Origin: Aureococcus anophagefferens | Lineage: Eukaryota > Sar > Pelagophyceae > Pelagomonadales > Pelagomonadaceae | Length of the DNA: 64,000 nucleotides | Direction: 5' to 3' | Assembly: GCF_000186865.1 (NCBI RefSeq) | Contig: NW_008705573.1 | Span: 672,983-736,982, forward strand | Shown: in pieces, positions 1,916 through 55,727 of the stretch | How the letters are laid out: each line of letters begins with the position of its first letter | Position numbering within the stretch: the stretch's first letter is position 1 | Notes under the pieces: generated by a model | What the model saw: the letters and a program-made list of their open reading frames with translations, nothing else | Databases searched by the model: none | What the model was told of the DNA's origin: nothing | Program-made: the position numbers and the translations under genes

Positions 1916-3681
1916 ATGCCCCGCTCGACGTCGCCGGACTGGCTCCAGGACCTGAGCCTGAGCGCGCAGAAACTGCGCCGGAGCGACGACCTGGACCTCG
2001 ACAAAATCTACGAAGACGTCAAGATCAGCAGCCCCTCGAAGAAGCTCCCGGAGCTCGCCTCCGTCGACGCGCCGCCGCCGACGCCGCCCCCGCCGCCGGT
2101 GACGCGCGACGGCGCGCTCTTCGAGCGCGCGGCGGCGCTCGCCGCGTCCGTCGACGGCGCGGCGGCGGACGCCTCCCCGGAGAGGCGGCCCCGCGTCAGT
2201 TGGGACGGCACGCCGAAGCGCGGGAGCGCGCGGGAGCGCGACGAGCCGCGCACGCCGCCCCGGCGCGACGCCGACGAGGAGCCCGCGACCGTGCTGCCGG
2301 CCGCGGCGATCCTCGCGGCCTACGCGGCGCCCGGGGACGGCGCGACGGCCGCGGACTTCGCCGCCGCGGCGCGCGCGGCGATCCTCGGCGCGCTCCGGTC
2401 GGACGCGGCGCCGACGCCGCTCTACGCGCGTCGCAACCACTCGCAGGCCGTCGACTTCCCGCACCGGCCCAAGCCCTCGCGCGACTGGTCGCCGGAGCGC
2501 GCGAAGCGCGTCGCGGCGGAGGAGGCGGCGGCGTGGCAGGCGTACTGGGCCGTGCTCAACGAGAACAAGCTCATCAGGCTGTCGTGGAGCTTCGCGCCCC
2601 CCGACCTGACGGCGCGCGCGAACGGGCCGCCGCCGCCCGTGCCCGGCCTCGAGGCGTTCTACGCCTTCTGCGCGCTCGGCGCGCGCCGCGGGGGGCTCTT
2701 CGAGGCCGGCGCCCATGCCCCGGGCCGCACCGCGGAGGTCGTCGCGGCGTCGCCCGACCTCATGCGGCTCGTTTGGGCCTTTTACAACTTCCGGACGCCG
2801 CGGCCCTCCACTATGCCGAGGTCCGTGCACCGCAACGGCGTCGAGGTCGCCAACGACTACGGCACGGAGCCCTACAGCGGCTGCGCGTACCACCCGTACT
2901 GCACGCGCGACTGCGAGTGCCTCGCGGGCGACTGCCTGTTGCGCCTCCGCGACGGCTCGCGGAGGCGCATGGACGCTTTGGCGGTCGGCGACCACGTGGC
3001 GACGGGCGCCGGCGGGCATCGCCGCGTGGTGAAGCTCTGGCCCGCGGCGGTCGATGCCGTCGCCGTCGTCGAGGTCGCGGCCAGGGCAGCACAAGAGAGC
3101 GAAATTCCCAACTTCAAAGGCTCCTTTCTCGGCCATTTTCCACTCGTTTCGGCTGATTTTTGGACGAGCGATCATCTCTCGGAACGGTCTCGAAGCGTGG
3201 ATGCCGTTTTTGGAACGCGCGCGCGCGGAACACGCACGTTGAAGAGACGTTGAATCACCCTTGTGCTGCCCAGGTCGCGGCGGGCTGCTTCCTGACGCCG
3301 AACCACCCCGTGCGCTTTGGCGGCGCGTGGCGCCGCGCGGGCGAGCTCGGCGCGGTCGAGGACCGGGGCCCCGGCGTCGTCTACGGCCTCGAGCTCGAGG
3401 GCCACGTCGACACGGTCCTCGTGGGAGACGGCGCGGTCGTCGCGGCCGTCGGCGTCTACTGCGGGCCGGCCTTCGGCTGGAACGTGTTCACGCGCAAGTC
3501 CGCGCGCTGCGACCGGCTCCGGTGCGCCGCCTGCGACGTCTGCGTCGACGCCGCGCTCGACTTCTCCAAGGTCGCGCCCGCGGACCTCGACGTCGAGTAC
3601 GCGCCCTACGTCGCCGACGACGACGACGACGACGACGTCGGCTTCGTCGACCATCGCCCCGCGATGATCGCGGTCGGCTAA
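1916..3681 (+). CDS. Hint (hedgehog/intein) domain protein, two exons split by an introner
   Basis: Exons are 1916-3073 and 3274-3681 (521 aa). The N-terminal two thirds are Ser/Pro/Ala-rich with no recognised domain. From about residue 335 a Hint fold is evident: C-L-A-G-D opening with a conserved Cys, then R-M-D-A-L-x-V-G-D. After the splice comes L-T-P-N-H-P-V, the block carrying the Hint His. The sequence ends in an H-V-D-T-V-L-V and G-V-Y-C-G-P segment often seen in algal Hint proteins, then an acidic tail. The introner sits inside the Hint domain; joining at GT 3074 / AG 3273 restores it exactly. Hint domains usually drive autoprocessing, but nothing shows a cleaved partner here. An upstream in-frame ATG at 1763 is possible; 1916 is preferred because it leaves a 5' leader clear of the divergent gene. 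Confidence 0.75.
3074..3273 (+). mobile_element. Introner family A copy 1 (200-bp intron)
   Basis: Target-site duplication GTCGCGGC lies at 3074-3081 and 3274-3281. The element begins CAGGGCAGCACAAG and ends CTTGTGCTGCCCAG, an inverted repeat. The donor GT is the start of the left duplication and the acceptor AG is the element end. It interrupts the Hint gene in phase 0. Confidence 0.93.
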
Positions 3682-3819
3682 GACTCGCGGTGTTTGGTGG
3701 TGCCCCCGTTCTTCGAGGGCGCCAAAGCGAAGCAGAGTCGTAGTGGTGTTTAGGAGGGGAGACGAAGCGAGGAAGGTCGGTCCGAGAAGCCGCGCGGACG
3801 GGGCTTTATTATGCCCCGT

Positions 3820-4429
3820 TTAGAGGGCCTCGTCCGACTTCCTGACGAGGTCCGTGAGGGCCATGTCGGACTCGCCCTTGTTGCGCACGTAGCCGCTGAG
3901 CGCGTAGGTCTTGTACGTGTTCGTGTAGAGGCCCGTGTTCGCGTCGATCGAGCCGACGTTGATCTGCACGGACGCCTTGTCGAAGGCCTCGATGAGGCGG
4001 TTCGTCCAGCTGCACTTGCGCGGGATGTAGAGGTCGACGGGCTGGCCCTGATCGTTCTGCGAGGGGAGGGGGGGGGGGTTGGGGTTCGCGCGGCGCGAGA
4101 CGGTCGCGCGACGAGCGCGGCGAACGTCCGACCGCGCGTCCCCGGCGAAGCGGGGAGCCGCGCAACGCCGCGCCGCATCGCCGCGGAGATGCTGTGCGTG
4201 TCTGCCACGCGTCGGCGGCGCCGCGGGAGAGGCGCCCGTCCGTCGAGGACCGCCGCGCACCCGTAGATGCTGCGGCGACCGCTCTCCGCGGAAACGTCCT
4301 CCAGCGGCGTCGTTTTTTCGTGGTTTTGACGCGCGCAGCGTCTCCGCAGCTTAGTGGCACGGCGCGGCGTTTGGAGGGCGGATTTGGGCGCGCGTGGGCG
4401 CGTCTGGACGCCGCTTGGCGAACCTGCAT
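3820..4429 (-). CDS. RPS21: 40S ribosomal protein eS21 (RPS21)
   Basis: This is a small-subunit ribosomal protein of the cytosolic ribosome. The second exon (4056-3820) encodes N-D-Q-G-Q-P-V-D-L-Y-I-P-R-K-C-S followed by the family's K-T-Y-A-L-x-G and G-E-S-D blocks. Total length is 80 aa, close to the usual 83. Exon 1 is just ATG CAG (4429-4424), giving the conserved Met-Gln start. The intron spans 4423-4057 (367 bp, GT-AG) and has a strong pyrimidine tract before the CAG acceptor. A very early intron is common in ribosomal protein genes. A GAGAGAGA run lies just upstream (about 4461-4475), between this gene and the divergent dipeptidase gene. Confidence 0.9.
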
Positions 4430-4511
4430 GATGTCTCGAGTTTTGGGCGACCGGCGAGCCGAGAGAGAGAGAGAGATTATCATTTGTCCGGAGCAAGCTC
4501 TCAGAGCAGCT

Positions 4512-6682
4512 ATGGCAGGCTCGCCAATGATCCGCCTTGCCAGCCTCGTCGCGCTCGTCGCACCGGCAATCCAGTCCTTGGTCATCCTCGGCGACGACTA
4601 CGACCCGGCCTGGCTCAACGACCGCTGCACGTCGATCATCGTCGGCGCCGACGCCACGGGCGACGGCGGCCCAACAACCAGCCACACGAACGACTGCAAC
4701 GCCTGCGACTTCCGCCTCAGCAAGGTCGAAGCGAAGACCGTGGACCCGGAGGGCGACCGGCCCGTCTACCGCTACCGCGCCGAGTACCCGCGCTTCGTCG
4801 GCGACGCCAAGGGCTCGACGTACGCCGCGGCCGCGCTCAAGGACTACTACCCCTGGAAGGAAAATAAGGGCGACTTCGCGCCGCTGGGCACGATCCCCTG
4901 GGGCACGAGCCGCACGAACGCTTATGTCGATGGCGCCTACGCGATGATGAACGAGCACCAGCTCGCGATCGGCGAATCGACGTGCGGCGCGCGGATTACC
5001 GCGTTGCCCGTGAGCGAGGGCGGCCTCGCGCTCCTCGACGCCCGCGAGCTGTCGACCATCGCCCTGGAGCGCTGCGCGACGGCGAAGTGCGCCGTCGAGC
5101 TCATGGGCGCGCTCGCCGAGGAGTACGGCTACTACGGCGCCGATTCGACGGCCGGAGAAGCGGGAGAGGCCCTCACCGTCGTAGACACGGAGCACGCCTG
5201 GGTCTTCCACATCCTCGCCGACGACACGGGCGCGTCGGCCGTCTGGGCCGCGCGGCGCGTGCCGCCGGGCGACGTCGCGGTCGTCGCGAACCAGTTCGTG
5301 ATCACGACGTTGCCCGAGGAAGAAAAGGGCGACTGGTGGCTCGCGTCCGACAACGTCCGGACCGTCGCGGCCAAGGTCGGCCTCTGGGACGGCGCGGCCG
5401 ACTTCAACTTCCTCGAGGTCTACGGTTTGAGCCGGCTCCACCTGTCGCCGTACGCGACGCGGCGCCAGTGGCGCGTCTTCGACACGGCGGCGCCGTCCCT
5501 CAACCTGCCCGGCGACACGGACGCCTGGGGCCGTGACTACCCCTTTTCGGTGACGGCGGAATCGACGTTTGGCGCCGACGCGGTCAAGGCCCTGTTCCGG
5601 GACCACTACGAGGGCACGCCGTACGACATGACGCGAGGCATCGCCGCGGGCCCGCACGGCGACCCGAACCGCTTCGACACGTCGGCGACCTTCGACGTGG
5701 GCTACGCCCACGCGGGCGACGCCGTGACCATGGACGAGGCGTCGAGCGGCATGTTCGAGCGGGCCATCTCCATCTTCCGCTGCTCCTACTCGTTCGGCTC
5801 AGTGCAGGAAAAGAGAGCGAAATTCCCAACTTCAAAGGCTCCTATCTCGGCCGTTTTCCACTCGTTTCGGCTGATTTTTGGACGAGCGATCATCTCTCGG
5901 AACGGTCTCGAAGCATGGATGCTTTTTCCGGAACGCGCGCGCGCGGAACACTCATGTTGAAGCGAACTTGAATCACCCTTTTCCTGCCCAGGTTCGTGTC
6001 GCAGAGCCGGGGCGTCCGGGGCGAGGCCGCGGGCTACCCGTCCGTGCTCTGGGTCGCGCAGTACGCGCCCCACGCCGCGTCCTACGTGCCCGTGTACGTG
6101 GACGCGGATGCCGTGCCGGAGCCTTTGGCGTCGGGCAGCCTGCACGCGGTCGACGCGAAGGCGCAGTACTGGGCGCACGCGATGGTCGGCAACTGGGCCG
6201 CGCGCTTCTGGGACGCGGCCATGCCCATCGTCGCCAAGACCATCGACGACGTCGCCAACGACATCGAGGCGAAACGCCGGGCGGTGGAGGAGGCGGCCAA
6301 GGACGCGGACGGCGCGGCGCGGGCCGCGGCGCTCGGGGCCTTCGCGAACGCGACGGCGGCGGACGCGCTGGCGACCTGGTGGGCCTTGTTCTGGGACCTG
6401 GCGGCGACGGTCAAGGACGGCCAGCGCCTCGACGACATCCACGTCGAGAAGCTCAACCCGACGAAGCTCTTCTACCCGCGGCGCTGGCTCGACGCGATCC
6501 ACTTCTTCCCGGGCTCGGAGAAGAGCGCCTGGGCCACCTACGCGCCGAGCGAGACGTCCATCGTCGCCTACGGCATCTCCTTCCTCCTCGGCGCGGCGCT
6601 CGCGGCCTTCATGGTCAAGCAGAAGGAGCCCAAGGCCGAGCCCGTCCCCGCGACGAACGGCTACGGCCTCGTGAACGCGTAG
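4512..6682 (+). CDS. Peptidase family C69 (dipeptidase/secernin-like), membrane-anchored
   Basis: Exons are 4512-5791 and 5992-6682 (656 aa). The signal peptide is at residues 1-22. N-D-R-C-T-S then places Cys39 as the likely N-terminal nucleophile of this Ntn-hydrolase family, followed by D-G-G and H-T-N-D-C as in C69 dipeptidases. Later blocks E-H-A-W-V-F, V-V-A-N-Q-F-V-I and a W-x-V-F-D-T region also fit. A hydrophobic stretch near the C-terminus (about 625-645) predicts a membrane anchor with a short basic tail. The substrate is probably dipeptides in a secretory or lysosomal compartment (inferred). The introner at 5792 interrupts a codon in phase 2; splicing restores S-Y-S-F-V-S-Q. Confidence 0.82.
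5792..5991 (+). mobile_element. Introner family A copy 2 (200-bp intron)
   Basis: The left flank GTTCGGCT (5792-5799) and right flank GTTCGTGT (5992-5999) match at 6 of 8 bases, so the duplication has drifted. The termini are CAGTGCAGGAAAAG and CTTTTCCTGCCCAG. It is a GT-AG intron in phase 2, and the internal sequence is nearly identical to copy 1. Confidence 0.92.
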
Positions 6683-11067: not shown

Positions 11068-11078
11068 CATCATACTAT

Positions 11079-14830: not shown

Positions 14831-14834
14831 ATTC

Positions 14835-26193: not shown

Positions 26194-27183
26194 CTAGCCG
26201 AAGACCTGGACCGTCGCCGTGATCTCCGCGCGGCAGATCGGGCAGCGCGAGCCGGAGGCGGAGAGGTGCGTGGAGGCGCACGACGCGCAGACGCACTTGT
26301 GGCCGCACGGGAAGCAGAGGTGCGTCCGCGACGCGTCGGCGAAGCAGATGGCGCACTCGTCTTCCTCTTTCGGCTCCTGGGGCGGCTCGGGCTGCTTCGC
26401 GCGCGCGCGCTTCTTGGGCGGCGGGGCGGCCGGGCGCTTCTGCTTGGGCGGCGCCGCTGCCGCGCGTTTCTTCTTGGGCTGCGCGGCGGCCGCGCGTTTC
26501 TGCGAGGGCTTCGCGGCGATCTCGGGCTTCTTGGCGCGCGCCGCGACGAGCGCTTTGACGTCTGAGGCGGAGTATGTCTTGACGTTGCAGGTGTGGTGAT
26601 TGCCACTCGTCGGCTTCCGGGCGAGCTCGAAGGGGAGGTCGTCGAAAGAATGGATGTTCAGCTGCGGATACCGCGCCATCGCCGTCGTCGCCGTGTAGCG
26701 CGCGCCACTCTCAACCTCGCGCCAGCGCGGGTCGACGGGTACCGGCTCGGCGAAGCGAGCGGCAAGCGCGTCGACGTCGGCCGCGGCAAAGGTCTTGACG
26801 TCGCGCGCGGCTTGACCGGCGCTCCCCGGCTTCCAGGCGATCTCGCTTGGCAGTCTCGCGAAGAACCTCGAATGATTGAGCTGTGGGTACCGCGCCATCG
26901 CCGTCATCGCCGTGTAGCGCGCGCCGCTCTCGACGTCGAGCCAGCGCGGGTCGGCGGGTTCCGGCGCGGCGAGGCGAGCAGCGGCAAGCGCGTCGACAGC
27001 GGCCGCGGCGTAGGTCTTGACGTCGCGCGCGGCTTGACCGGCGCTCCCCGGCTTCCTGGCGATCTGGAAGCGCAGGTCCTTGCATGAATCCTGCGTCAGC
27101 TGCGGGTACCGCACCACGGCCGTCGTCGCTGTGTAGCGCGCGCCGCTTTCGACCTCGCGCCAGCGCACCACCTTCGCCTCCAT
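26194..27183 (-). CDS. RING E3-like protein with three tandem ~70-aa repeats
   Basis: 329 aa from the ATG at 27183. Three consecutive repeats each start R-W-(R/L)-(E/D)-V-E-S-G-A-R-Y-T-A and continue with R-Y-P-Q-L and a D/N-V-K-T-(Y/F) block. A basic A/P/K linker follows (about 205-265). The C-terminus is a C3HC4 RING: C-A-I-C, C-G-H-K-C-V-C, C-A-S-C, C-P-I-C-R-A. The RING suggests ubiquitin ligase activity; the repeats may bind substrate. The repeat family is not recognised. It is divergent with the MIPS-kinase fusion. Confidence 0.78.
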
Positions 27184-32954: not shown

Positions 32955-34475
32955 ATGCCGCGGCGGCGCGCGATCGGCGGCGCCGAGATCGCCAGCGTGC
33001 TCTGCTGCTTCGGCTGCCTCATGGTCCTGGCCAACGTCGCCTTCGCCACCCTCGAGGCCGCCGCGGCCTGCGACCGCGCCCGCGGCGACCTCGCCGCCGC
33101 CGACGCCGCGGACGCGAAGAAGCCGGAGCCCAGGCCCTTCTCCGTCGTCGCGCTCCAGCGGAGCGTGGTGCCGAGCCTCGCCGCCGAGGCCTGGGCCGCG
33201 TACGCGCCGCCGCCGACGGCGGCGCCGACGCCGCCGACGCCGCTGCTACCGGACGCGCGGCCCGTGAGCGAGCGAAGCGCCCGGGACGAGCGCACGTTCC
33301 TCATCCCGAGCTACCCGACGAGCGGCAGCGAGATGGTCCGCGGCTTCTTCTCCGAGGCCACGGGATTAGGCCAGGGCGAGGTCTACGGCCCGCAACCCGG
33401 CGCGAAGCTCCTCCGCTACGCGGCCGTCGGCCGCGCGGGCGCGAAGCTGCCCTTCTTCTACGACGAGACATACGGCCCGCCGGGGGCGGCGCCGACGCTG
33501 CTCAAGACCCACTTCCCGCTCCTCGTGGGCAAGCAGCGCGACCCCGACTTCTTCGGCGGCTCGGTCCTGAGGACGTACTTCCACGGCGTCGCGCTGCTCG
33601 CGCGCCACCCCGTCGACTGCGTCGTCGGCGAGCTCACGCGCTGGCCCTGCCAGCGCGCCGCGGACGCCGCGAAAGCCGCGCTCGACGCCGGCGCCGCGGA
33701 CTACGACGACCGGCGCGCGGCCGTGAACTCGGAACGGGCCGCGTGCCGCGTCGAAGCGATCCGCGGCCTCTGCCGGCGCGTGAAGCCGCTGGGCCTCGAC
33801 ACGCTCGCGCGCCAGTGGGCCGACTTCTACGAGTACTGGCTCGCCGCGGCGGACGCGCAGGGCGTCCCGGTCCGTGTGGAAATCAACCGCCGGTTTGGCA
33901 CGTCCCGACCAAACTTTGAAATTCTCTCGCTCGGTCACATCGAAGTCGATTTGGCTGATTTTTGGACGAATCGATTGCTCTCGTCGAGTCTTCGAAGCAC
34001 GGCCGAAAAGCCCGGTCCAAACCATTCGATTAAGTGCACATTGAAGTCAGGTTGAAGATTTGAGTTCCACGCAGGTCCCGCTCCGCGTCGTCCGCTACGA
34101 GGACGCGGTCGGCGACCCCGCGGCGACGTTTTCCGACCTCCTCGCCTTCATGGGCGTCGCCGTCGACCGGCGGCGCCTCGCGGCCGCCGCGAAGATCCAG
34201 GTCGCCGCGCGGCCGCCGCCGAAGACGTTCGGCGACCGCCTCTCGGCCGTCTGCGCGACGGGCTGGACCGCCGCGCGGCCGGGGCCCGCGGCGACGCACC
34301 GCGCCGCGGGGCCGTCGCTCGCGGAGGCGACGATCCTGTCCGTCGCGGGACCCACGGCGCGCAGGCTCGGGTACCGCATAAACGGGACTTTGTCGTGGCC
34401 GCGGGCTCTCTTCGGCGCCTGTATCTCGCGATCGCCAAAGCTCCCCCCAAGGGCTGTGGCAGAAACTGCTTTGCG
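32955..34475 (+). CDS. Type II membrane sulfotransferase-like protein, 3' end uncertain
   Basis: Exon 1 is 32955-33863; exon 2 begins at 34075. An N-terminal signal anchor (about 10-33) is followed by a stem and a sulfotransferase core. P-S-Y-P-T-S-G-S-E-M resembles the PAPS 5'-phosphosulfate loop; L-L-A-R-H-P-V-D is the 3'-phosphate region. After the introner comes V-R-Y-E-D-A-V-G-D-P. It would transfer sulfate in the Golgi lumen (inferred). Recognisable sequence ends near L-G-Y-R-I-N-G-T-L at about 34390. The frame stays open to 34992, deep inside the next gene, so a 3' intron or a missed stop is likely. The end given is the start of the next gene, not an observed stop. Confidence 0.62.
33864..34074 (+). 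mobile_element. Introner family B copy 1 (211-bp intron, forward)
   Basis: Flanks are GTCCCGGT (33864-33871) and GTCCCGCT (34075-34082), 7 of 8 matching. Termini are CCGTGTGGAAATC and GAGTTCCACGCAG. It is a GT-AG intron in phase 0; splicing restores A-Q-G-V-P-L-R-V-V-R-Y-E-D. Confidence 0.92.
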
Positions 34476-39241: not shown

Positions 39242-42200
39242 TTATCGAGAGAGGCGCGTGCCCCAGTAGGTGCGGTCGTCGCCCTGGGACGCGTAGGTCT
39301 GGCCCGTGCACGCGTTCTCGTACCAGACGACGCTGTCGCGGTCCGCGAGCGCGCCGATGATGTCGAGGTCGTAGTCGCGGTCGACGTCGGCCATGGCCGC
39401 GAAGCGGATGCCGCCGGCGTCGTCGGAGACGTCGTGGGGCGCGAAGGCCATGGCGCCGTCGTTCTCGTACCACGCGACGGTCGAGTCGTACTTGTTCGAC
39501 GCGAGGACGTCGACGTCGCCGTCGCCGTCGAGGTCCGCGGGGATGACGGAGTAGGCGCCGTCGGCGCCCTCGGAGACGACGTGGGGGTCGAAGGCCATGG
39601 ACCCGTCGTTCTCGTACCACGCGACCTGCGACGCGCCGCGGATCGCGGCGAAGATGTCGACGTCGCCGTCGCCGTCGCCGTCGCGCGCGACGACCATGCG
39701 CGGCTGGACGACCTCCGTGTCGACGACGATGCGCTCGAAGCCCATGGCGCCGTCGTTCTCGTACCAGGTGATGGAGTAGTCGTAGCCCGTCGCGACGACG
39801 ACGTCGACGTCGCCGTCGCCGTCGAGGTCGCCCGGGAACACGGACCAGGGCCCCGCGATGCCCTCGGCGACGACGTGCCGCGTGTAGACCCAGCCCGCCT
39901 CGTTCTCGTACCAGACGACGGAGCCCATGGTCCAGGACGACGCGATGACGTCGTCGTCGCCGTCGCCGTCCATGTCGGAGACCCACACGGACACGGCCGC
40001 GTGCGAATCGTCGACCAAAACCTCCGTGAAGACCATGGCATCGTTGACGAAGAGGCGCGTCGAGTTGTCGCCCCAGGACACGGCGATGACGTCGAGGTCG
40101 CCGTCTTCGTCGAAGTCGGCGAAGGCCGCGAAGGCCGCCTGTTCGGCGTCGTCCGCGATGACGCGCTTCGCGAAGCTCTCGGCGCCGTCGTTCTCGTACC
40201 AGGCGACCGTGTCGTCGTGCAGGGACGTGGCCAGGAGGTCGATGTCGCTGTCCTGGTCCATGTCCGCGGCCCAGACGTAGGACGGGTTGTCCGAGTTCCC
40301 GTCGATGACGCGCTCGTCGAAGACCAAGCCGGTGTCCGCGGAGCAGTCCATGCGCGCAAAGGCGGCGGGCGACGGCGCCCTCGTCGGCGCCCGCGTTTTG
40401 GTCGTGGGCGCCGGCGCCGGCGCGACCGTCGGCACGGGGGCGAAGGTCGCGTAGAGCGCCGCGACCTGGGCATCGTCGAGCGCGACGTCGTAACAAAACA
40501 AGTCGTCGACGGAGCCGAAGAAGGGCGCCGCCGTCGTGCCGCCGATCGTTAAGACTGATGCCGCCGTGGTCAACGACGCCGCGCCCGTGTCCCGGAGCGC
40601 GCCGTCGACGTAGAGCGCCCAGGTCCCGGCCCCGTCGAAGGTCAACAGCACGAGGTGCCACGCGCCCACGACCAACCCGACGTCCGCCACGGCCACGGCG
40701 CAGGCGCCCGTGAACGCGAGCTCGAGGTGGCCGTCCTCGTCGCCCGTGGCGATGCCAAAGTTCTCGCAGGGGCCGTCGCCGCCGCCGACCTCGAGGACGT
40801 AGGCGCCGTCGAACTTGTCGAAGCGGAGCCACGCGCCCAGGTCCGCGGCGCGTCGCCCGTGAGCTCGGGCACGACGTCGTCCATGGCGAAGCCGTGCTCG
40901 CCGCCGAAGAAGCGCGCGGGCGTGTTGAAGGGGCCCGTGTTCAACGACGCGCCGTAGGTCTCGGAGATGGCGTAGCCGTTCGCCGAACCGTCGAACGTCG
41001 GCTGGTCGTAGCCCGTCATGGACCCGTCGTCGAAGTCGAACCAGAAGACGAGCTCGTCGTCCATGAACGCGAGGACGTCCGTCGGCGCCGCCGTCGGCGC
41101 GTTGCTGCAGCCGCAGGCCTCGCGGCACGCCTCGTAGGCGACGCGGCCGTCGTCGCCGACGGCGGCGCACCGCGGCTCGTGCTGCCGCACCCAGTCGCAG
41201 TGCTTCGACGGCGTGTTGGCCTTGAACCAGGCGCCGTCGTCCTCGCACTTCGTCGGGGCGCGCGTCGGGTCCGCCGTCGGGGCCGGGACGGGCGTCGTCG
41301 TCGGCGCGCGCGTCGGCGCCGGCTTCGTCGGCGCGGCCGTGGGCCCCGCGAACGGCGCGGTCGTCGGCGCCGGCGACGGTTTCGCCGTCGTCGGGGCGTC
41401 GGACGGTCGCAGCGACGGCGGCGCCGTCGTCGGGGCCAGCGACGGCGCAAAGGGCGCCGCCGTGGGCCAGAGCAAGGGAATAAAAAACGCGTCGTCGAAG
41501 TCCTCGACGGACGACGCGAACGTCGCGGCCGCGGACGTCGTCGCGGCGCTGGAGAGGGCCGCCGAGGCGCCGTAGAGCTCGCTGTACTGTTCCAGCGCGG
41601 CGTTGAGCTCGTCGTTGCGCAGCAGGGCCGCGCGGACGGCCGCGACGAGCAGTAACGACGTGTTGTAGCGCGCGCTCGGATTTTCCACCTCCAGGACGAA
41701 GCTCAGGTCGATGGAGGCGACGTCGACGGGCTCGAAGTCGTCGATCTGCAGCGACGAGTCGACGAGGGGCTCGACGCCGTCCGGGCCGTAGAGCGCCGCG
41801 AAGAGCGCGTCGCGCGTCGCCGAGGCCTCCGCGTTTCCGAACGACGCCGCGGTCATGTTCGCCACCCGGAACGTCGCGCTCACGTAGGCGACGGCGAGGC
41901 TCGCGTAGGGCGTCGTTTTCGCGGCGCCGCCGCCGCCGTCGTCGTCGTCGCCGCCGCCCGCGGCGACGACGCGGTACGCCGCGAAGCACGTCATCGCCAG
42001 CACCTGGGCAGCACAAGAGTGATTCAACGTCGCTTCAACGTGAGTGTTCCGCGCGCGCGCGTTCCGTAAAAAGCATCCACGCTTCGAGACCGTTCCGAGA
42101 GATGATCGCTCGTCCCAAAATCAGCCAAAACGAGTGGAAAACGGCCGAGAAAGGAGCCTTTGAAGTTGGGAATTTCGCTCTCTTGTGCTGCCCTGGCCAG

Positions 42201-42908
42201 CACGAAGAGGCAGCACCAGGCCCCGAGAAACGTGCGCGCGCAGCGGTCCGACGACGCCGCGCCGCCGTCCTCCGGCTCCGCCTTGTCCCGTTCTTCGGGT
42301 TCCTCCAACCCGAGGAAGGCCCGGCCGGCCCGCTCCGTGGACGCGCGCCGATCGCGCGGCGGGAGCTTGATCTCCGGAGGGACGCCAACATCGTCGACAC
42401 GTTTCTCCCGCTCGACCTCCTCGAGCTGGGCCGCCATCCAGTCCTCGGCCTCGAAGTCGGGCTGGGCGGGGACGCCGCCGTCCTCGGGCGCGTCGTCGAT
42501 GTCCGGCGTGTGGCGCTCGTTCGGCTCGTCGACGGGCGCGTCCGGGTGCGGCCGCGCCCACTCGCGCTCGTGCTGGCAGCAGAAGAAGGGCTCGAGGCCC
42601 GTGAGGGATCGGACGATGTCGAGGGCCGCGTCGGGTTCCGGCGCGTCGAACTCCGGCGCGTCCGGCACCGCCGCTCTGCGCCACGCGGCCTCCTCCGCGA
42701 GGCGCCGGCTCTCCCTGGGCGCGTCGAACCAGCGCTGCGGCGACACGGCCTTCTGCGCCGAGCTCGCGACGGGGGCGAGGTAGGCCGGCTGCTGGTGCGG
42801 CGGCGCGCTCCGCGCTTCGCCGCCGAGGCTCCGGCGCCGGCTCTCCATGAAGTCCTCCTTCTGGCGCGGCGCGTCGCCGCTGCTTTGCCGGCCCCAGCGG
42901 TCCGCCAT
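39242..42908 (-). CDS. Type II membrane protein: SEA-like, ShK-like, LamG and FG-GAP repeats
   Basis: Exon 1 is 42908-42204 (235 aa, cytosolic, Asp/Glu/Arg-rich); exon 2 is 42003-39242. The membrane segment is built across the splice (C-C-L-F-V-L-A-M-T-C-F-A-A-Y). The outer part, in order: a SEA-like region, a P-T-x-x-P stalk, an ShK-like module (D-G-A-W-F-K, C-D-W-V, R-C, C-x-x-x-C-G-C), and a LamG-like domain (A-W-L-R-F-D-K, L-Y-V-D-G, S-V-D-D-L). Then about eight FG-GAP/VCBS-type repeats with D-x-D-x-D-G-D calcium loops and W-Y-E-N-D-G turns. A one-base frame break lies at about 40843-40850, before the LamG strand. About 1155 aa. Adhesion or glycan binding at the cell surface is inferred. 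Confidence 0.75.
42004..42203 (-). mobile_element. Introner family A copy 3 (200-bp intron)
   Basis: Perfect duplication GTGCTGGC (coding strand; window positions 42196-42203 and 41996-42003). Termini are CAGGGCAGCACAAG and CTTGTGCTGCCCAG. GT-AG, phase 0, same orientation relative to the host gene as all other family A copies. Confidence 0.93.
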
Positions 42909-43106: not shown

Positions 43107-46100
43107 ATGGCGCCGCGCGTCGGCGGCGCGTTGGCGCTGCTCGTCGCCGGAGCATCGGCCCAGTGCCACAACAACTGCAACCAGAAGGGCCTCTGCAACA
43201 GCCGGTCGATCTGCGAGTGCTTCACGGGCTACGCGGGCCCGGACTGCGCCGACCGGAGCTGCCCCTCGGGCCGGGCCTGGTCCGACATGCCCAACGCGAC
43301 GGACAGCGCGCACGCGTACGCCGAGTGCTCGAACCGGGGCTACTGCAACCGGAAGACGGGCTTCTGCGACTGCGACGCCCTCTTCGGCGGCTTCGCGTGC
43401 GACCGCCTACAGTGCGCGACGATGTACAGCGAGGCCGAGCCGGACGAGTTCGGCGAGCAGCCCGAGTGCAGCGGCCACGGCCGCTGCATGAGCGTCGCCG
43501 AGGCCGCCGAGTCCTTCGACGGCTTCCACCTGAACCGCAGCGCCCACCGCTACGACCCCCAGGGCGTGCCCTACGATTTGTGGGACGCGGACATGATCTA
43601 CGGCTGCGTCTGCGACCCGGGCTTCGAGTCCTTCGACTGCTCCAAGCTCACCTGCGACGTGGGCGACGACCGGCGCACGGTCGGCCAGCGCGACGAGGTC
43701 GCGACCCTCTTCTGCAAGTGCGAGGCGCCCTGCAACGGCAGGCTCGCCGTGTCGTTCATGGGCGACGAGTCGACGATATCGCCCGCCGCGACGGCCGACG
43801 ATTTGCGGATCAAGCTCGAGGGCATGCGCTACCTCCACGCCGAGGCGGGCCTCCTCTACCCGAAGCCCATCGCCGTGACGTCCGGGGGCACGACGGACGG
43901 CGCGATCTGCTCGCAGGGCGGCCAGCGGAGCGTGATCGAGTTCCTCCGCGACGCGGGCGACCTGCCGCCGCTCTGGGTCGACGACGCCGAATTGTTGAGC
44001 GACATGGGCCGGGGCTACGCCTACATGGAGACGAACATGACGCTCAACTGCTCCTGCGCGGCCTGCTCCGGCTCCTTCACGCTGACCTACGACGGCGAGG
44101 CCACGGGCGGTCTGTCCTACGACGCGTCGCCGGGCGACGTCGAGGCGGCGCTGCTGCGGCTCTCCAACCTCCAGGAGGGCGACGTCCGCGCCGTCCACTG
44201 GGGCGGCAACGCGGGCGCGGGGCTCTGCGTCGGGGAGAACATCCTCGTGACGTTCACGATGCCGTCGGGCAACCAGCCGCCGCTCGTCGCGACGTCGTCC
44301 CTGCTGGAGTCGGGCGCGCCCGGCGGCGCCATCGACGTGTGCAGCAACGACGGCACGAAGGAGCGCGACCTTTGCAACGCCGCGGGCTTCTGCGACCGGG
44401 ATGGGCTCGTCACGCTCGACATCGAAGCGACGGATCCGAAGTTGGTCAACGGCACGTGCGCGTGCGACGAGGGCTTCGTCTTCGACCAGGACTTTGGCTC
44501 CTGCGGGCGGCCGGCGTACAACACGTCGGCGTGGACGGGCCTCCAGCGGTGCCCGGGCTACGTCACGAAGGACACCGCGCGCGAGCCCGCGGCGCCGCTG
44601 AACTGGCGGTGGCTCTACGTGGCCGACGGCATGAACCTGACGGAGCTCGTCGAACTGGAGAACAACCCCGTCGTCGTCTCGTCGGCGAACGAGTCCGGCA
44701 GCGGCGACGTGAAGCTGCCCGGGGCGTACCAGGTCGGCCCGCTCGAGCCGAACGAGGAGGACGTTCCCGAGACGACGCAGCTCTGGAACATGACGAACTC
44801 GTCCGTCGCCGGCGTGGCGCTGGATTTATCGTGGCGGGAGTTGTACTACGTGGACCGCGACCTGGGAGGCATCCGTGTGGCGAAGTTAAAGAACTACAGC
44901 GACCAGCTGACGATCCAGGAGAACCGCTTCGAGAACACGATCGTCGTCCAGGGCCTCGGGAACACGATCGACGGCATCACGCTGAATCTGTTGTTCGGCG
45001 AGCGGACGCTCTACGTGGCGGACCCGGGCCGCGACGGCCACAAGGACGGGAAGATCTACATGGTGTCGCTCGAGGACCGCGGCGGCGCGTACGGGGAGAC
45101 GTACCTCTACGCGAACGTGACGAATCTGACGACGGTCATCGGGAGCCAGGTGGCCCTCGTGGACCCCCAGGGCCTCGCGCTGGACCTGCTGAACCGCAAG
45201 CTCTACTGGACGGACTCGGGCAACAGCTCCGTCGAGGACGGCAAGGTCTACATGTCGAATCTGGACGGGTCCGACGCGGTCTGCGCGCTCGAGCGGGGCC
45301 TCTGGGACCCCATGGGCATCGTCTTGGACCTGCGCAACTACACGATGATCCTCACGGACGAGTCCGCGGGCCACAACGGCCACGGGGCGATCATCAAGGC
45401 GAACATGGCCTACGGGCCGGAGACTGTGTGGAAATCGACCACTGGTTTGGGAGGTCCCCACCAAACTTCAGAACTCTCTAGCTCGGTCAAATCGAAGTCG
45501 ATTCGGCTGATTTTTGGGACGGATCGATCGCTCTCGTCGAGTTCTCAAGCGCGCAAAGAGCTTGCGTCGAACCATTCGAATACGCTCAAATTGAATTCGG
45601 GTTGAAGATTTGATTGCCACACAGGCCGGAGATCTGGAAGCAGAAGCCCAACGCCATCGCGTACTACGCGAACCGGACGTGGTGGCAGGTCATCCTCGAG
45701 GAGTACGAGACGCTAACCGTGGGCGGCGTCGACACGCTCCACAAGCCCTATGGGATCGTCCTCGACACGACGAACGACATGCTCTACGTCTCGGACTCGG
45801 AGTCGGGCCACATCATCAAGTGCGACGTCAACGGCAGCTTGGGGAGCGTCGTGCCCATGACGTTCATGGACCAGGGCGTCCCCATGGGCATGGCCCTGGA
45901 CAACGGCCTCGGCCCGTCCCAGGACCGGGGCGCCTACGAGTGCTACGGCCACGGCCGCTGCGGCGGGCCCGAGGCGAACTTCAAGTGCGCGTGCGACGAG
46001 GGCTGGTACGGCAACTGCAACATGTCCACGTGCCCGCTGGGCCGCGCCTTCTTCGACCAGCCCTGGACGCGCGACGAGGGCCACGCCCTCGTGCCCTGCT

Positions 46101-47733: not shown

Positions 47734-47737
47734 CACG

Positions 47738-49440
47738 CTAGACTACTGGCGGTTCCCAGGACGACTCGCCCGTGGCCGCGTTGTAGTAGTAGAGGTGGCC
47801 CTCGTCCGTGTAGGCGCTCGTCCAATCGCCGCGCTTCGTCTCGTCGGCCTTGGCGAGGGGGGGCGTCCCGAAGCGCCACGCCGACGAGCGCCGCTTTCCC
47901 CGACCCGAGGCGCCGCGGCGTCGTCCTCGACGCGCGCGCGCTCGTCCGCCGCGTCGACGGCGGCGCCTCCGGGAGCTCGACGCTCCCGCCGTCGGGACTC
48001 AGCGGGTTCGGCGTGAAGTCGACGGGCGACGCCGCGCCCGTCGAGCTCCGCGGCTTGCCCTCGTCCGGCGCCGGCGGCTCGTCGCTCCGCCGCAGGAGCA
48101 CGTAGCGCCGGTAGCCGTTGGCGCAGACGGACGCGAGGCTCGCGGCGAGCGTCGCGAATTCGATGACGCTGTCCGCCGACGGCGCCAGCAGCGCCAGCAC
48201 GGACGCGACGGCGGTGACGCCGTGCTTCGCGAGGTCCAGGGCCAGGGAGACGCGGCTCGAGAAGACCGTGGGAAACGACCGCGCGAAGTGCTTGAGGCCG
48301 ATGCGCTTCAGCCGCACCACGCCCTCGTCGTCGCGGTCCCGCGCGTTCGCGCGCCAGGGCAGCAGGGGGATGAGCTCCGGGTCCAGGGTCACGAAGCCCG
48401 CGATGACGAGCAGCAGCCGCCGTTTGCGCGGGTCCGCCGGGAGGTCCAGGCCCGGCGCGACGACGCGGAGCCGAACGAGGAGCGCCGCGGACCTGGGCAG
48501 CAAAAGGGTGATTCAACGTCGCTTTAACGTGAGTGTTTCGCGCGCGCGCGTTCCGGAAAAAGCATCCACGCTTCGAGAGCGTTCCGAGAGATGATCGCTC
48601 GTCCAAAAATCAGCCGAAACGAGTGGAAAACGGCCGAGATATGAGCCTTTGAAGTTGGGAATTTCGCTCTCTTGTCCTGCCCCGCCGCGGACGACAGCGC
48701 CGCGCACGTCAGGACGCTCACCTCCACGTAGAAGAGGACGCGCCGCGTGTACCAGAGTTCGATCAAAAAGCAGATGACGAAGGCCGTGTCGCAGACCGAC
48801 AGGAGCAGCATCGTCCGCTTCTGTTTGTCCGACACGCGCGACTCCGCCACGACCAGGATGGGCTCGAGGACGGCTAGGAGGCCCAGCGCGAGCACGCCGA
48901 GCGACCGCAGGATCCACCGGTACCAGACGCTGCGCTTCTTCGACCGCGACCACGCGACGCCGCCGCTGGCGATGAAGACGAGGCCGTCGTCGTCGACGGC
49001 ATTTGCGGCGACGACCGTCGCGTTCGTCGGCCGCAGCGACGGCGCGCGCGACGGCGCGCGCGACGCTCGGGCGACGACGGCGCGGGCGACGACGGCGCGG
49101 GCGACGACACCACCACCTTTTGGGGCGCGGGCTCCGCGGACGGCGCGACCGTCGGCCGCGGCGTCGGCCGCGGGGTGGGCCGCGGGGTGGGCGGGTGGCA
49201 GTTGGACGCCTCGCACTCCAGCCACGAGTTATCGTAGGTGATGCCGTCGTCCTTCACGGCATCGGCGCACCAGGGGTAGTGCCAGCTGCCCTTCCCTCCG
49301 CTACCGACGTCCGTGCAGGCCTCGTAGGTCACATCGTAGTAGATGAACGGGAAGATGCAGCCCGCGGGCTGGCAGTCGTCGAACCAGTCGTCGCCGAGCG
49401 CGACGCGGGCGATGGCGGCGAGGGCGAGCCAGCGCACCAT
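47738..49440 (-). CDS. FN2-transmembrane-WW protein, paralogue X
   Basis: Exons are 49440-48693 and 48492-47738. The order is: signal peptide; FN2-like domain (G-C-I-F-P-F-I-Y-Y, then W-C-A-D); P-T-P-R-P stalk; about four membrane segments starting W-Y-R-W-I-L-R-S-L-G-V; a conserved segment with L-D-P-E-L-I-P-L-L-P-W-R; and a C-terminal WW domain (Y-T-D-E-G-H-L-Y-Y-Y-N-A-A-T-G-E-S-S-W-E). Two single-base frame breaks are apparent: one missing base at about 49068 in a GCC/TCG repeat, and one extra base at about 47894 in a short homopolymer. The total length is then exactly divisible by three. Paralogue Y is intact at the first site. Function unknown; possibly a membrane sensor. Confidence 0.7.
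48493..48692 (-). mobile_element. Introner family A copy 4 (200-bp intron)
   Basis: Perfect duplication GTCCGCGG on the coding strand (48685-48692 and 48485-48492). GT-AG, phase 2, restoring L-S-S-A-A-L-L-V-R. The paralogous site in gene Y (at about 50415-50450) is uninterrupted. Confidence 0.93.
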
Positions 49441-49633: not shown

Positions 49634-51190
49634 TTATCGCTCGCCGAGGCGCCACGCCGTCGAGCGCCGCGGCCCCGACCCGAGGCGCGCGGACCGCGTC
49701 GACGACGGCGCCTCGGGGAGCTCGACGGCGGCCCCGTCGAAGGTCTTCTGCAGCGGGTTCGCCGTGAAGCTGACGGGCGACGACGCGCCGCGCGGCGCGC
49801 CCCCGTCCGGCGCGCCCGGCGCCTGGGCAGGAAAAGGGTGATTCAACGTCGCTTCAACGTGAGTGTTCCGCGCGCGCGCGTTCTAGAAAAAGCATCTACG
49901 CTTCGAGACCGTTCCGAGAGATGATCGCTCGTCCAAAAATCAGCCGAAACGAGTGAAAAACGGCCGAGATAGGAGCCTTTGAAGTTGGGAATTTCGCTCT
50001 CTTTTCCTGCCCTGCCCGGCGCGTCTCCGCGCCGGAGGAGCACGCAGCGCCGGTAGCCGTTGGCCAGCACCGCCGCGAGGCTCACGGCGAGCGTGGCGAA
50101 CTCCAAAACGCTGTCCGGCGACGGCGCGAGCACGGACACGATCGACGTGGCGGCGGTGACGCCGTGCTTCGCCAGGTCCACGGCCAGGGAGACGCGGCTC
50201 GAGAAGACCGTCGGGAACGACCGCGCGTAGTGCTTCAGGCCAAAGTGCTTCAGCCGCAGCACGCCCGCGTCGTCGCGGTTCCGCGCGCTCTCGCGCCAGG
50301 GCAGGAGCGGGATGAGCTCCGGGTCCAGGGCCACGAAGGCCGCGATGACGAGNNNNNNNNNNNNNNNNNNNNNNNNNNNNNNNNNNNNNNNNNNNNNNNN
50401 NNNCGACGCGGAGCCGGACGAGGAGCGCCGCGGACGCGAGCGCCGCGCACGCCACGACGGCGACCTCCACGTAGAAGAGGACGCGCCGCGTGTACCAGAG
50501 TTCGATGAGAAAGCACGCGACGAAGCCCGCGTCGCAGACCGACAGGAGCAGCAGCGTCCGCTTCTGCGCGTCCGACACGCGCGACTCCGCCACGACCAGG
50601 ATGGGCTCGAGGACGGCCAGGAGCCCCAGCGCGAGCACGCCGAGCGACCGCAGGATCCACCGGTACCAGACCGTGCGCTTCTCGGACCGCGACCACGCGA
50701 TCCCGCCCGCGTCGAAGAGCGCCAGCTCGTCGTCGTCGTCGGCGGCGGCGGCCGCCGCGGCGTCGGTCGGCGCGCGCGTGCCCCGCGACGGCGCGCGCGA
50801 CGGCGCTTCCGACGACGGCGCTTCCGACGACGGCGCCCGCCGCTCGGCGGACGGCGCGGCCGACGGCTCCGCGGGCGCGACCGTGGGCGCGTACGTCGGC
50901 CGCCGCGTCGGCCACGGCACGGGCCGCGGCGTCGGCGGGTGGCAGTTCGACGCCTCGCACTCGATCCACGCATTATCGTAGGTGATGCCATCGGCCTCCA
51001 CGGCGGTCGCGCACCAGGGGTAGCGGTAGCTGCCGCTCGCGCTGCTCTCCCATACGTCCGTGCAGCCGTCATAGGTCACGCCGTAGTAGATGAACGGAAA
51101 GATGCAGCCCTCGGGCTGGCAGTCCTCGAAGTCAAAGGTCTGGCCGGCGGCGATGGTCGTCGCGGCGGCGAGGACGAGCCGGCGAAACAT
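49634..51190 (-). CDS. FN2-transmembrane protein, paralogue Y (lacks WW domain)
   Basis: Exon 1 is 51190-50023 and contains an assembly gap; exon 2 is 49822-49634. It is collinear with X: signal peptide, FN2-like domain (G-C-I-F-P-F-I-Y-Y-G-V-T-Y), P-T stalk, the same W-Y-R-W-I-L-R-S-L-G-V membrane block, and L-D-P-E-L-I-P-L-L-P-W-R. It ends R-L-G-S-G-P-R-R-S with a stop where X goes on into a WW domain. The 51 N at 50353-50403 lie where X has 50 bases, which explains the apparent frame change across the gap. About 450 aa. This tandem duplicate has diverged in its tail and introns. Confidence 0.75.
49823..50022 (-). mobile_element. Introner family A copy 5 (200-bp intron, GC-AG)
   Basis: Perfect duplication GCGCCGGG on the coding strand (50015-50022 and 49815-49822). 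The intron begins GC and ends AG, phase 0, restoring R-G-D-A-P-G-A-P-D. No insertion exists at the matching place in paralogue X. Confidence 0.92.
50353..50403. other. Assembly gap (51 N)
   Basis: Unknown bases inside paralogue Y. Alignment by eye with paralogue X predicts 50 bases here. Confidence 0.99.
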
Positions 51191-52348: not shown

Positions 52349-52349
52349 C

Positions 52350-53357: not shown

Positions 53358-53415
53358 CGCGCCTTGGCCTTGGGTCAACAACCGTTCAATCACGGTTCAA
53401 AAACCGGCGTGTGCA

Positions 53416-53817: not shown

Positions 53818-53979
53818 CCCGACGACGGGCGCGCCCGGGCGGCGGACTCGCCCGGGCCCGCGTAACGCGCGCTGTTGTGTTCCGCGGGGGAGCCTCCTCG
53901 GGGGCTGCGCCGCCGAGACCGGCCGGCGCGGGGCGACGCTCGGACGAGTGTGTTACGACCGCGCCGGTCGGGCCCGCGC

Positions 53980-55727
53980 TCAGCGGTTGAGGGACGATAT
54001 GGAGTCGAAGATGGGGAGCTCCGTGAGGACGCAGACGTTGTAGACGACCTCGAGGCAGAGGAACGCGACGAAGAAGATGAGGACGTTGCGGCTGCCGAAG
54101 GAGTCGGCGAGCCGCGCGCCGAAGAGGCTCCCGAGCCAGGTGCCCGGCAGCGAGACGAGCCAGAGGCACACGGGCACGAGGCCGACGATGAAGTAGTACG
54201 TCGCCGCGATCGCGCTCACGAGGCCCACGACCTGCGCCGAAATCAACCGCTGCGGTCCTGACCAAACTTCAGACCTCTCGAGCTCGGTCAAATCGGCTGA
54301 TGTTTGGACGAATCGATGGCTCTCATCGAGTTCTCCACGGAAATCAAGTCGCGTCGAAACCGTCGCATACGCCCACATTGAAGTCGGGTCGAAGATGTGA
54401 TTCGAGACGCGGCCGGCGACGGTGATGCACGACACGCCCGCCTGCGTCGTGTCGACCTCGACGCGCCGCGGGTGCATGGTCAGGAGCATGTAGAGCATCT
54501 TCTCGATGCCGATGCCGATGAAGCCCGTGATGATGCCGCCGAGGAGGCCGACCGCGAGGATCGACTCCCGGGGCACGTGCGGCTTCTGGTTGTCGGGGAC
54601 CTGGGCAGGAAACGGGTGATTCGACGTCGCTTCAACGTGAGCGTTCCTGCGCGCGCGCTCCAGAAAAACGCATCCGTGTTTCGAGGCCGCTCCGAGGGAT
54701 GATCGCGCGTCCAAAAATCAGCCGAAACGAGTGGAAGGCGGCCGAGCTCGGAGCCTTTGAAGTTGGGAATTCGCGCGCTTTTCCTGCCCTGTCGGGGACG
54801 ACGTCGGCCGCGTCGGCCTGGTCCATCATCTCGCGCCAGGACCCCGCCGACGGCCGGCGGCGCATCGTGCCCCGCGGGTTCTGGAGGTCGTGGACCACGG
54901 AGATGATGAGGACGACGACCTGTGTGGAAATCAACCACTGGTTTGGGGGGGGGGGCACCAAACTTCAGAACTCTCGAGCTCGGTCAAATCGACGTCGATT
55001 CGGCTGATTTTTCGACGAATCGATTGCTCTCGTTGAGTTCACGAAGCACGGCAGAAGAGCTCGTGTCGAAACCGTCGCATACGCTCACATTGAAGTCGGG
55101 TTGAAGATTTAGTTTCCACACGGACGACGACGACGATCGTGAAGATGAGCAGCACGTACCACTCCGGGTCGCCGAAGAAGTACCTAGAGATTCGAAGTCG
55201 AAAGCGGTCGAAGAAACAAGACGCCGAAGGACGCGCTCGAAGACGAAGAGCGTGAGGGACACGCCGATGCCGCCGGAGAACGTGCCCCAGAAGAGGATGT
55301 CGTGCAGGAACACGGCGTAGGCCTCGTAGACGATGAACGACCCGGGCACGAAGAGCCCGACGCCGATCATCTGCGTCGCCGCCGCGTAGGCCACGGCCTC
55401 CGACGGCGAGAAGCCCGCGAGCATGAGGATGGGGAAGAAGACGATGCCGCCGGCGACGGGCGCGCCCGCGGACGGGATCGTCGACGCGAGGCCCATGAGC
55501 GGCCCGTACCAGTACTTGGCGAGCTCGCTCGGCGGGTAGAGGACGCAGGGGATCGTGATCAGGAGCGCCAGCAGCGCGCTGCAGTAGGCGAGCTTCGTCC
55601 AGGTCATGGGCGTGTGCGTCGGCTCCGGCTCCGGCGCCTCGCCCTCGTCGCGCAGCTTGACGAACTCGGCGTGCTCCTCCTCGGGCACGAGGGCCTCCTC
55701 CTCGCCGCCCTTCCGTTCCACGTACAT
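53980..55727 (-). CDS. TauE/SafE-family anion exporter with three introner introns
   Basis: Exons: 55727-55237, 55183-55132, 54919-54800, 54600-54421, 54231-53980 (364 aa). Two TauE/SafE halves are visible. The first has G-A-P-V-A-G-G-I-V-F-F-P-I-L-M-L-A-G-F-S and A-A-A-T-Q-M-I-G-V-G. The second has G-L-L-G-G-I-I-T-G-F-I-G-I-G, V-P-V-C-L-W-L-V-S-L-P-G-T-W-L-G-S and G-A-R-L-A-D. About eight membrane segments; no signal peptide. The family moves sulfite, sulfoacetate or other anions. Intron 1 (55236-55184, 53 bp) fits only as GC-AG. Introns 2-4 are introners B, A and B. ATG at 55727; no ATG lies upstream in frame. Confidence 0.8.
54232..54420 (-). mobile_element. Introner family B copy 3 (189-bp intron, reverse, degenerate)
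   Basis: Flanks GTCGCCGG and GTCGTGGG match at 6 of 8, and the terminal repeats have lost the TGTGTGG core, so this looks like an older insertion. The length is divisible by three and the frame has no stop. It lies in the opposite orientation to copies 1, 2 and 5 relative to the gene. GT-AG. Confidence 0.82.
54601..54799 (-). mobile_element. Introner family A copy 6 (199-bp intron)
   Basis: Perfect duplication GTCCCCGA on the coding strand (54792-54799 and 54593-54600). Termini are CAGGGCAGGAAAAG and TTTCCTGCCCAG. GT-AG, phase 0, restoring A-D-V-V-P-D-N-Q. The interior is the most diverged of the A copies. Confidence 0.92.
54920..55131 (-). mobile_element. Introner family B copy 4 (212-bp intron, reverse)
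   Basis: Duplication GTCGTCGT (55124-55131 and 54912-54919), placed in a GTC repeat that codes Val-Val-Val. Termini are CCGTGTGGAAACT and GATTTCCACACAG. GT-AG, phase 0. The interior contains a run of 12 G on the plus strand near 54945. Confidence 0.9.

What the first reader, a model, noticed from the sequence alone, without database searches (positions are those of the whole stretch)
3074..54799. Six near-identical 199-200 bp introns that are transposable introner elements (family A)
Copies at 3074, 5792, 42004, 48493, 49823 and 54601 share one interior, terminal inverted repeats built on GGGCAG(C/G)A, and flanking 8-bp duplications (four perfect to the eye beyond copy 1, one 6 of 8). They sit in six unrelated or paralogous genes, and removing them restores the reading frame each time. 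All six read in the same direction as the host gene. Introns created by DNA-transposon-like insertion are established for Aureococcus; this window shows an unusually dense, young set.
Basis: partly seen in the sequence, partly recalled or inferred. Interest (0 to 1): 0.9.

Follow-up and report, generated by a model that had tools for sequence, protein, structure and literature searches.

The report
Transposon-made introns in Aureococcus
Six near-identical introns in this brown-tide alga are copies of a small mobile DNA element that becomes an intron where it lands in a gene; this is already known for the species, and the extra detail here is that one base at the end of the element goes with the direction in which it can be spliced.

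Summary
Confirmed. All six segments are real: a 191-192-bp element with terminal inverted repeats (TIRs) and an 8-bp target duplication (five perfect, one 6 of 8). Each reads as a GT/GC...AG intron: the donor is the start of the duplicated target, the acceptor AG is the element's end. A tandem paralogue is a natural empty site for one copy; protein domains run over the junctions of copies 1, 2 and 6. The genome is very probably Aureococcus anophagefferens, with about 1,000 complete copies by an exact-end pattern. Such introners are reported for this species, so the core finding is already known. The window is not significantly denser than the genome.

New as far as I could read: about a third of family A has its interior reversed, yet the base that makes the acceptor (TIR position 2) lies at the downstream end on the coding strand in 102 of 102 copies (148 of 148 for both families). 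Polarity switched at least 3 times on a tree. Copies are sense in coding DNA in 140 of 141 assignable cases, 1 unclear, none antisense; random insertion plus exon selection explains this poorly. No transposase was found, in searches that were partly inconclusive, and no RNA data were at hand.

The parts
3074..3281 (+). Family A copy 1: donor-side duplication GTCGCGGC 3074-3081, element 3082-3273, second duplication 3274-3281; intron 3074-3273
   Evidence: Hint (Vint) domain of the host runs over the junction
5792..5999 (+). Family A copy 2: duplication GTTCGGCT/GTTCGTGT (6 of 8), element 5800-5991; intron 5792-5991
   Evidence: peptidase C69 domain and homologous proteins continuous over the junction
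41996..42203 (-). Family A copy 3: duplication GTGCTGGC, element 42004-42195; intron 42203-42004
   Evidence: no domain support
48485..48692 (-). Family A copy 4: duplication GTCCGCGG, element 48493-48684; intron 48692-48493
50428..50435 (-). Natural empty site of copy 4 in the tandem paralogue: a single GTCCGCGG and no element
   Evidence: alignment
49815..50022 (-). Family A copy 5: duplication GCGCCGGG (GC donor), element 49823-50014; intron 50022-49823; not present in the other paralogue
54593..54799 (-). Family A copy 6: duplication GTCCCCGA, element 54601-54791; intron 54799-54601, in a TauE/SafE-like gene
33864..34082 (+). Family B introner (related core, TIR on C-N-GTGTGG): duplication GTCCCGGT/GTCCCGCT (7 of 8), element 33872-34074
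45416..45632 (+). Family B introner with T at both ends; duplication GCCGGAGA (GC donor), element 45424-45624
54912..55131 (-). Family B introner that reads as an intron against its interior direction: element 54920-55123, donor GTCGTCGT on the - strand
54232..54420 (-). Old, diverged family B copy in the same TauE-like gene (duplication 6 of 8); leaving it out raises the TauE score
   Evidence: 51.7 bits without it, 41.3 with it
62295..62513 (-). Family B introner: duplication GTCCGCGG, element 62303-62505

Best explanation
These are non-autonomous DNA transposons (MITE-like introners). An as yet unidentified transposase inserts the 192-bp element and duplicates 8 bp of coding sequence. If the duplicated target begins with GT or GC on the coding strand, it supplies the donor. 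The element's end ...CTGCCCAG supplies the acceptor AG. Removing 'first duplication + element' from the RNA leaves the original coding sequence. Shown here: duplication, TIRs, one empty site, frames and domains, donor and acceptor dinucleotides, sense placement. Inferred: mobility by a transposase in trans, and actual splicing (no RNA data). In family A the strand that can be spliced goes with TIR position 2: the acceptor end reads C-T-GGGCAG inward (hence CAG at the intron end) and the donor end C-A/G/C-GGGCAG. Interiors lie either way round.
For: Duplications 8/8 in 5 of 6 window copies and in 85 of 100 counted A copies, against 1.0% by shuffling. Empty site with a single target copy. Vint and peptidase C69 domains span the junctions of copies 1 and 2; TauE spans that of copy 6. 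Six homologous proteins, among them an NCBI A. anophagefferens model, are continuous over the copy-2 junction. Genome counts 662, 761 and 402 for end patterns and 1,016 for the complete A-ended pattern, controls 0. With the direction taken from the coding strand alone, the upstream duplication starts GT or GC in 148 of 148 copies, against 19.5% of flanking dinucleotides, and position 2 of the downstream TIR is T in 148 of 148; the upstream end is not T in 102 of 102 A and 19 of 46 B copies. In family B the two ends are otherwise alike, so this contrast (0 of 46 against 19 of 46 changed) points to purifying selection on the AG.
Against: No transposase or autonomous copy was found: the Pfam hAT dimer, KDZ and MULE models gave no match in the genome. 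The hAT and KDZ searches rang in no control genome, so they are inconclusive; only the MULE model rang in controls (3 of 14). No RNA-seq was available. Confinement to coding sense sites is more than a simple random-insertion model predicts.
Confidence: 0.95

Rival explanations
1. RNA-based spread: spliced intron RNA is reverse-spliced into other transcripts, copied to DNA and recombined back.
For: The assignable copies are sense in coding DNA (140 of 141, 1 unclear). The same pattern led the Micromonas authors to favour intron transposition (PMC3879977, passages).
Against: Copies carry their own 8-bp duplications that include the donor site; a reverse-spliced intron would bring the donor sequence of its source and make no duplication. 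TIRs are kept, and the interior occurs in both directions relative to the transcript.
Confidence: 0.03
2. Retained coding inserts: the segments are translated, not removed.
For: ORFs run into some copies in this GC-rich genome, for example 53980-54717 on the - strand, so open frames alone prove nothing.
Against: Protein domains and homologues run straight over junctions; one paralogue lacks the insert; GT/GC and AG are present in 148 of 148 copies.
Confidence: 0.02
3. Random insertion plus selection alone: the element inserts anywhere, and only sense copies at GT/GC targets survive in genes.
For: Explains why exonic copies are sense and have GT/GC; GT is taken 4.4 times as readily as GC relative to background.
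Against: Non-coding DNA should then shelter many copies with any target sequence. None of the 103 family A rows with one T end lacks a correctly placed GT/GC, which puts neutral landing space below about 0.3% of the genome, while my coding model leaves 11-12% non-coding (this includes untranslated parts and missed exons). Either non-coding DNA does not tolerate copies, or insertion is directed to genes.
Confidence: 0.35

Closest known systems
Introner elements of Aureococcus anophagefferens (Huff, Zilberman and Roy 2016, Nature 538:533; paper not held)
   Same: Same species. From citing papers: constant direct repeats, TIRs and canonical splice motifs (PMC7789003, passages), introns of about 210 bp (PMC9481584, passages), insertion between nucleosomes and in both orientations (PMC10228655, passages). 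Recalled, from no call: one splice site carried and the other co-opted from the duplication.
   Different: Whether that paper describes the one-base polarity rule, the T/T family B against polar family A, or repeated switching could not be checked.
Introners surveyed by Gozashti et al. 2022 (PMC9860276; abstract, passages and section 10 seen)
   Same: DNA-transposon introners; [quoted passage not shown] enrichment in genes and linker DNA.
   Different: The parts seen do not mention a terminal base that goes with polarity.
Micromonas introner elements (PMC3879977, passages)
   Same: Only in transcribed regions in sense orientation.
   Different: Those authors favoured intron transposition through RNA; here 8-bp duplications point to DNA.
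Amoebophrya introners with hairpin-forming inverted repeats (PMC7789003, passages)
   Same: Inverted repeats at both intron ends that can pair in RNA, direct repeats at the borders.
   Different: They are a subset of introns with non-canonical splice sites; here GT/GC-AG in 148 of 148 copies.

Membership tests
DNA-transposon introner (MITE type) | Target-site duplication of fixed length | tested here: met
   8 bp; 85 of 100 A copies 8/8, 12 at 7/8, 3 at 6/8
DNA-transposon introner (MITE type) | Terminal inverted repeats | tested here: met
   first 14 bp of family A, position 2 left out: 55 mismatches in 1,300 positions
DNA-transposon introner (MITE type) | Many near-identical copies at unrelated sites | tested here: met
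   1,016 matches to the complete A-ended pattern; median pairwise identity 91.7% among 100 copies
DNA-transposon introner (MITE type) | Empty site with a single target copy | tested here: met
   one case, tandem paralogue
DNA-transposon introner (MITE type) | One splice site carried, the other co-opted from the duplication | tested here: met
   148 of 148 with direction from the coding strand
DNA-transposon introner (MITE type) | Spliced from RNA | not testable with these tools
   no reads; indirect support from domains and homologues
DNA-transposon introner (MITE type) | Nucleosome-sized spacing of neighbouring copies | tested here: inconclusive
   42 adjacent pairs under 1.5 kb: 16 exons of 120-206 bp, none of 207-284, 7 of 285-347; suggestive, but no formal test of periodicity and no nucleosome data
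hAT superfamily of DNA transposons | 8-bp target duplication | tested here: met
   not specific to hAT
hAT superfamily of DNA transposons | Termini of the type C-A-G-N-G (recalled) | tested here: inconclusive
   C1 and G3 136 of 136 at both ends, G5 136 and 135 of 136, but position 2 is T at the acceptor end; the end finder favoured these letters
hAT superfamily of DNA transposons | Transposase with hAT dimerisation domain | tested here: inconclusive
   PF05699: no match, but it rang in no control genome either
RNA-propagated (reverse-spliced) introners | No target-site duplication | tested here: not met
   duplications present

The most novel reading that the evidence does not exclude
Family A is a two-way introner: one base pair, position 2 of its terminal repeat, decides which strand it can be spliced from, while the interior works either way round. 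Lineages have switched polarity at least three times, perhaps by inversion or end exchange between the terminal repeats, and each polarity then spreads as a heritable trait. In addition, insertion is steered to transcribed coding DNA, because selection on random landings leaves too few copies elsewhere.
Probability: 0.35. Interest if true: 0.6.

Novelty: already known. Interest (0 to 1): 0.42.

Why it matters
Introners are a well-documented source of new spliceosomal introns on genomic scales (PMC9860276, abstract). The window gives a clear natural empty site, and the genome about 1,000 copies by one exact pattern. The polarity rule makes a precise prediction: the terminal base, not the interior, fixes the usable strand. 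The lack of sampled copies outside coding sense sites makes the question 'targeting or selection?' directly testable by mapping fresh insertions.

Tried and rejected
1) Self-trained coding model from the longest ORFs: it labelled 56 copies antisense, 15 sense and the rest unclear or ambiguous. I judged that it had learned shadow ORFs on the wrong strand, because many of the longest ORFs were rich in arginine and poor in residue entropy, and replaced it by a model trained on ORFs of high entropy and low arginine (leave-one-out strand accuracy 72 of 80 on 240-bp pieces). The training ORFs include some in the same loci, but introner direction was not used in training. The choice of model was made; the domain-bearing hosts of copies 1, 2 and 6 agree with the second model. 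2) RNA-level pairing of the two arms: the arms co-vary at positions 7, 9 and 11 in family A, but mismatches show no clear excess of G-U over A-C (A: 8 against 9; B: 21 against 14), so selection on an RNA hairpin is not shown; DNA-level constraint or inheritance explains the covariation as well. The mismatch tally was wrong by a script error and was redone. 3) The non-T donor end as an adaptation that frees the AG: predicted folds have the A of AG paired in 17 of 19 T/T family B copies, 1 of 17 other B copies and 1 of 100 A copies, and T/T copies of B more often have perfect duplications (15 of 19 against 6 of 17, P = 0.017). But in B the donor-end changes are T to C in 13 of 17 and the neighbouring T positions drift too, so neutral drift towards G+C is enough. 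4) Introners in viral contigs: no match to the A end; two 18-mer core matches gave only 17-20-base similarity to the elements around that place and are taken as chance. 5) Autonomous element: hAT dimer, KDZ and MULE models without match. 6) Rfam at gathering threshold: no family in the window.

Rows dropped before counts; 164 BLAST places; no ends found for 3 A and 1 B; duplication under 6 of 8 in 2 A and 5 B; three V/V rows (two of them one degenerate place in L022) not assigned. One A/B mosaic (L065:291-482) is counted in both families and once, under B; 148 distinct copies (102 A, 46 B) after leaving out the above, 2 repeats and 1 B copy of unclear strand. Searches use 100 A and 36 B: elements under 185 bp and the 8 B copies with GT/GC both ways were left out; there the direction of 19 T/T copies came from the duplication itself, so the non-circular counts are those. 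Loci L001, L009, L021, L039, L090 and L100 were left out as repeats of places already held.
Full report
Observation. The six segments are present at the stated coordinates. Each is an 8-bp duplication, a 191-192-bp element and a second copy of the duplication. Five duplications are perfect and one is 6 of 8. The introns are 199-200 nt and run from GT or GC (the first bases of the first duplication) to AG (the end of the element). Among 100 counted family A copies, 85 have 8/8 duplications, 12 have 7/8 and 3 have 6/8, against 1.0% at 8/8 after shuffling partners.

Empty site and frames. Two tandem paralogues (about 47.5-49.25 kb and 49.3-51.2 kb, minus strand) align closely over much of their length. 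The first carries copy 4 between two GTCCGCGG; the second has one GTCCGCGG and no insert at that place. The second carries copy 5, which the first lacks, though the sequence around that site has diverged. Removing copies 1-4 gives open frames over the junctions, and copy 5 then agrees with its paralogue. The host of copy 1 has a Hint (Vint) domain and that of copy 2 a peptidase C69 domain across the junction; the hosts of copies 3 and 4 had no Pfam match. The host of copy 6 is TauE/SafE-like across its junction and across two family B copies; an unexplained frame change lies further upstream in that gene. Six aligned homologues of the copy-2 host, from a search that found 916 and listed 120, are continuous over the junction; one is named Aureococcus anophagefferens by NCBI.

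Genome. The window is part of a 49.05-Mb, 86-contig assembly without a name. Pattern counts: right end with T 662, right end with another base 402, left end 761, core 17-mer 2,110, complete elements with a C-A-GGGCAG end 1,016; reversed-pattern controls 0 in each. The window has 6 core matches against 2.75 expected, P = 0.06, and 3 complete-pattern matches against 1.3 expected, so it is not significantly dense. Among 100 A copies the median pairwise identity is 91.7%.

Polarity. When copies are oriented by their interior, family A falls into two forms. Form F has C-A/G/C-GGGCAG at the left and ...CTGCCCAG at the right, with a duplication that starts GT or GC. Form R has C-T-GGGCAG at the left and, at the right, an end without AG (mostly ...CTGCCCTG), with a duplication that ends AC or GC, that is, one that starts GT or GC on the other strand. 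In two fetched sets of 20 each, 20 of 20 and 20 of 20 follow this (two of the F places were already held). Over all rows with a duplication of at least 6 of 8, 74 of 74 F and 29 of 29 R agree (in 33 of these 103 the other strand also starts GT or GC); the 2 remaining A rows are one degenerate place. By exact end patterns on C1 and most of C2, 57 left ends have an exactly matching right end, and 57 of 57 have exactly one T end; 43 of the 100 listed left ends had no exactly matching partner. Genome-wide 6 elements match with T at both ends. Of the first 100 listed matches to the A-ended pattern, none was listed on both strands, as an element with A at both ends would be, and 31 are form R by my reading of that list; the rest of the 1,016 were not listed. 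A tree of 100 interiors needs 9 changes of polarity, at least 3 of them forced by well-supported branches; shuffled labels need about 25. The tree is weak: 13 of 96 inner branches are starred, 61 are open, and the bootstrap had not settled. So polarity is inherited but has switched repeatedly. Both a swap of the two terminal bases and an inversion of the interior between the repeats would do it; I cannot tell them apart.

Family B shares the core but has C-T-GTGTGG ends. Rows with T at both ends (27 of 48 with a duplication) have GT/GC in at least one direction in 27 of 27. Rows with one T end agree with the duplication in 20 of 20; 1 row is unassigned. In the window, the copy at 54920 reads as an intron against its interior direction.

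Direction without circularity. In some searches the direction of a copy was taken from its ends or, for T/T copies, from its duplication, so counts of the acceptor T there hold partly by construction. One search takes the direction from the coding strand alone: 148 copies (102 A, 46 B). The downstream end has T at position 2 in 148 of 148, and the upstream duplication starts GT (80) or GC (68) in 148 of 148. The upstream end is not T in 102 of 102 A and 19 of 46 B. The interior runs against the gene in 28 of 102 A and 25 of 46 B. The contrast between the two ends of family B (0 of 46 against 19 of 46 changed) is the best evolutionary evidence here that the AG is used.

Placement. With a coding model trained on high-entropy ORFs, the splice direction agrees with the coding strand in 140 of 141 assignable copies: A form F 74, A form R 28, B 38; 1 is unclear, none is antisense, and 8 further B copies could not be assigned. 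A first model, trained on the longest ORFs, gave the opposite answer for most copies it could call (56 antisense, 15 sense) and was discarded as trained on shadow ORFs. In the 38 copies picked by end pattern on contig C1 rather than by similarity, it is 38 of 38. In a segment-based reading with the second model, both flanks are coding in the sense direction for 122 of 141 copies, one flank for 17 and neither for 2 family B copies. That model-12% of the sequence non-coding. Since none of the 103 A rows lacks a correct GT/GC, truly neutral landing space would have to be below about 0.3% under random insertion. Directed insertion into genes, or intolerance of non-coding DNA, is needed. Sense-only placement was noted before for Micromonas (PMC3879977, passages).

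Splice sites. In the 136 copies donors are 76 GT and 60 GC, and the remaining six bases of the duplication show no clear consensus. Relative to flanking dinucleotides GT is taken 4.4 times as readily as GC. A 2011 survey gives 39.6% GC-AG introns for A. anophagefferens (PMC3033335, passages), so the high GC share is known. Exons between neighbouring introners cluster at 120-206 bp (16 of 42) and 285-347 bp (7 of 42), with none in between, in line with insertion between nucleosomes but not formally tested.

Literature. Huff et al. 2016 is not held. Citing papers say that it describes these elements in A. anophagefferens, with insertion between nucleosomes and in both orientations (PMC10228655, passages), and with constant duplications, TIRs and canonical splice motifs (PMC7789003, passages). 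I therefore file the finding as already known. The polarity rule did not appear in the parts I saw of PMC9860276 or in the listings of the searches; this is not proof that it is unpublished.

Noticed in passing
L065:291-482: A mosaic element: the left about 130 bp is family B and the right about 60 bp family A, with one perfect 8-bp duplication. It suggests that one transposase can use both end types, or that copies recombine.
   Followed up: partly
window 54232-55131: Three introners (old B, A, B) in one TauE/SafE-like gene, separated by exons of 180 and 120 bp.
   Followed up: partly
window 55132-55844: In the same gene the frame changes between the first exon and the stretch just upstream of the family B copy; an unrecognised intron or an assembly error.
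   Followed up: no
window 50353-50403 and 63978-64000: Two runs of N (51 and 23 bases); the first lies inside the second tandem paralogue, and the frame differs on its two sides.
   Followed up: no
window 39281-40354 and 26542-27166: Tandem repeats with units of 147 bp and about 219 bp, inside long ORFs.
   Followed up: no
P0003 (NCBI A. anophagefferens protein): The deposited model of the copy-2 host lacks stretches that its homologues have (alignment columns 274-334 and part of about 567-632); possibly a gene-model error.
   Followed up: no
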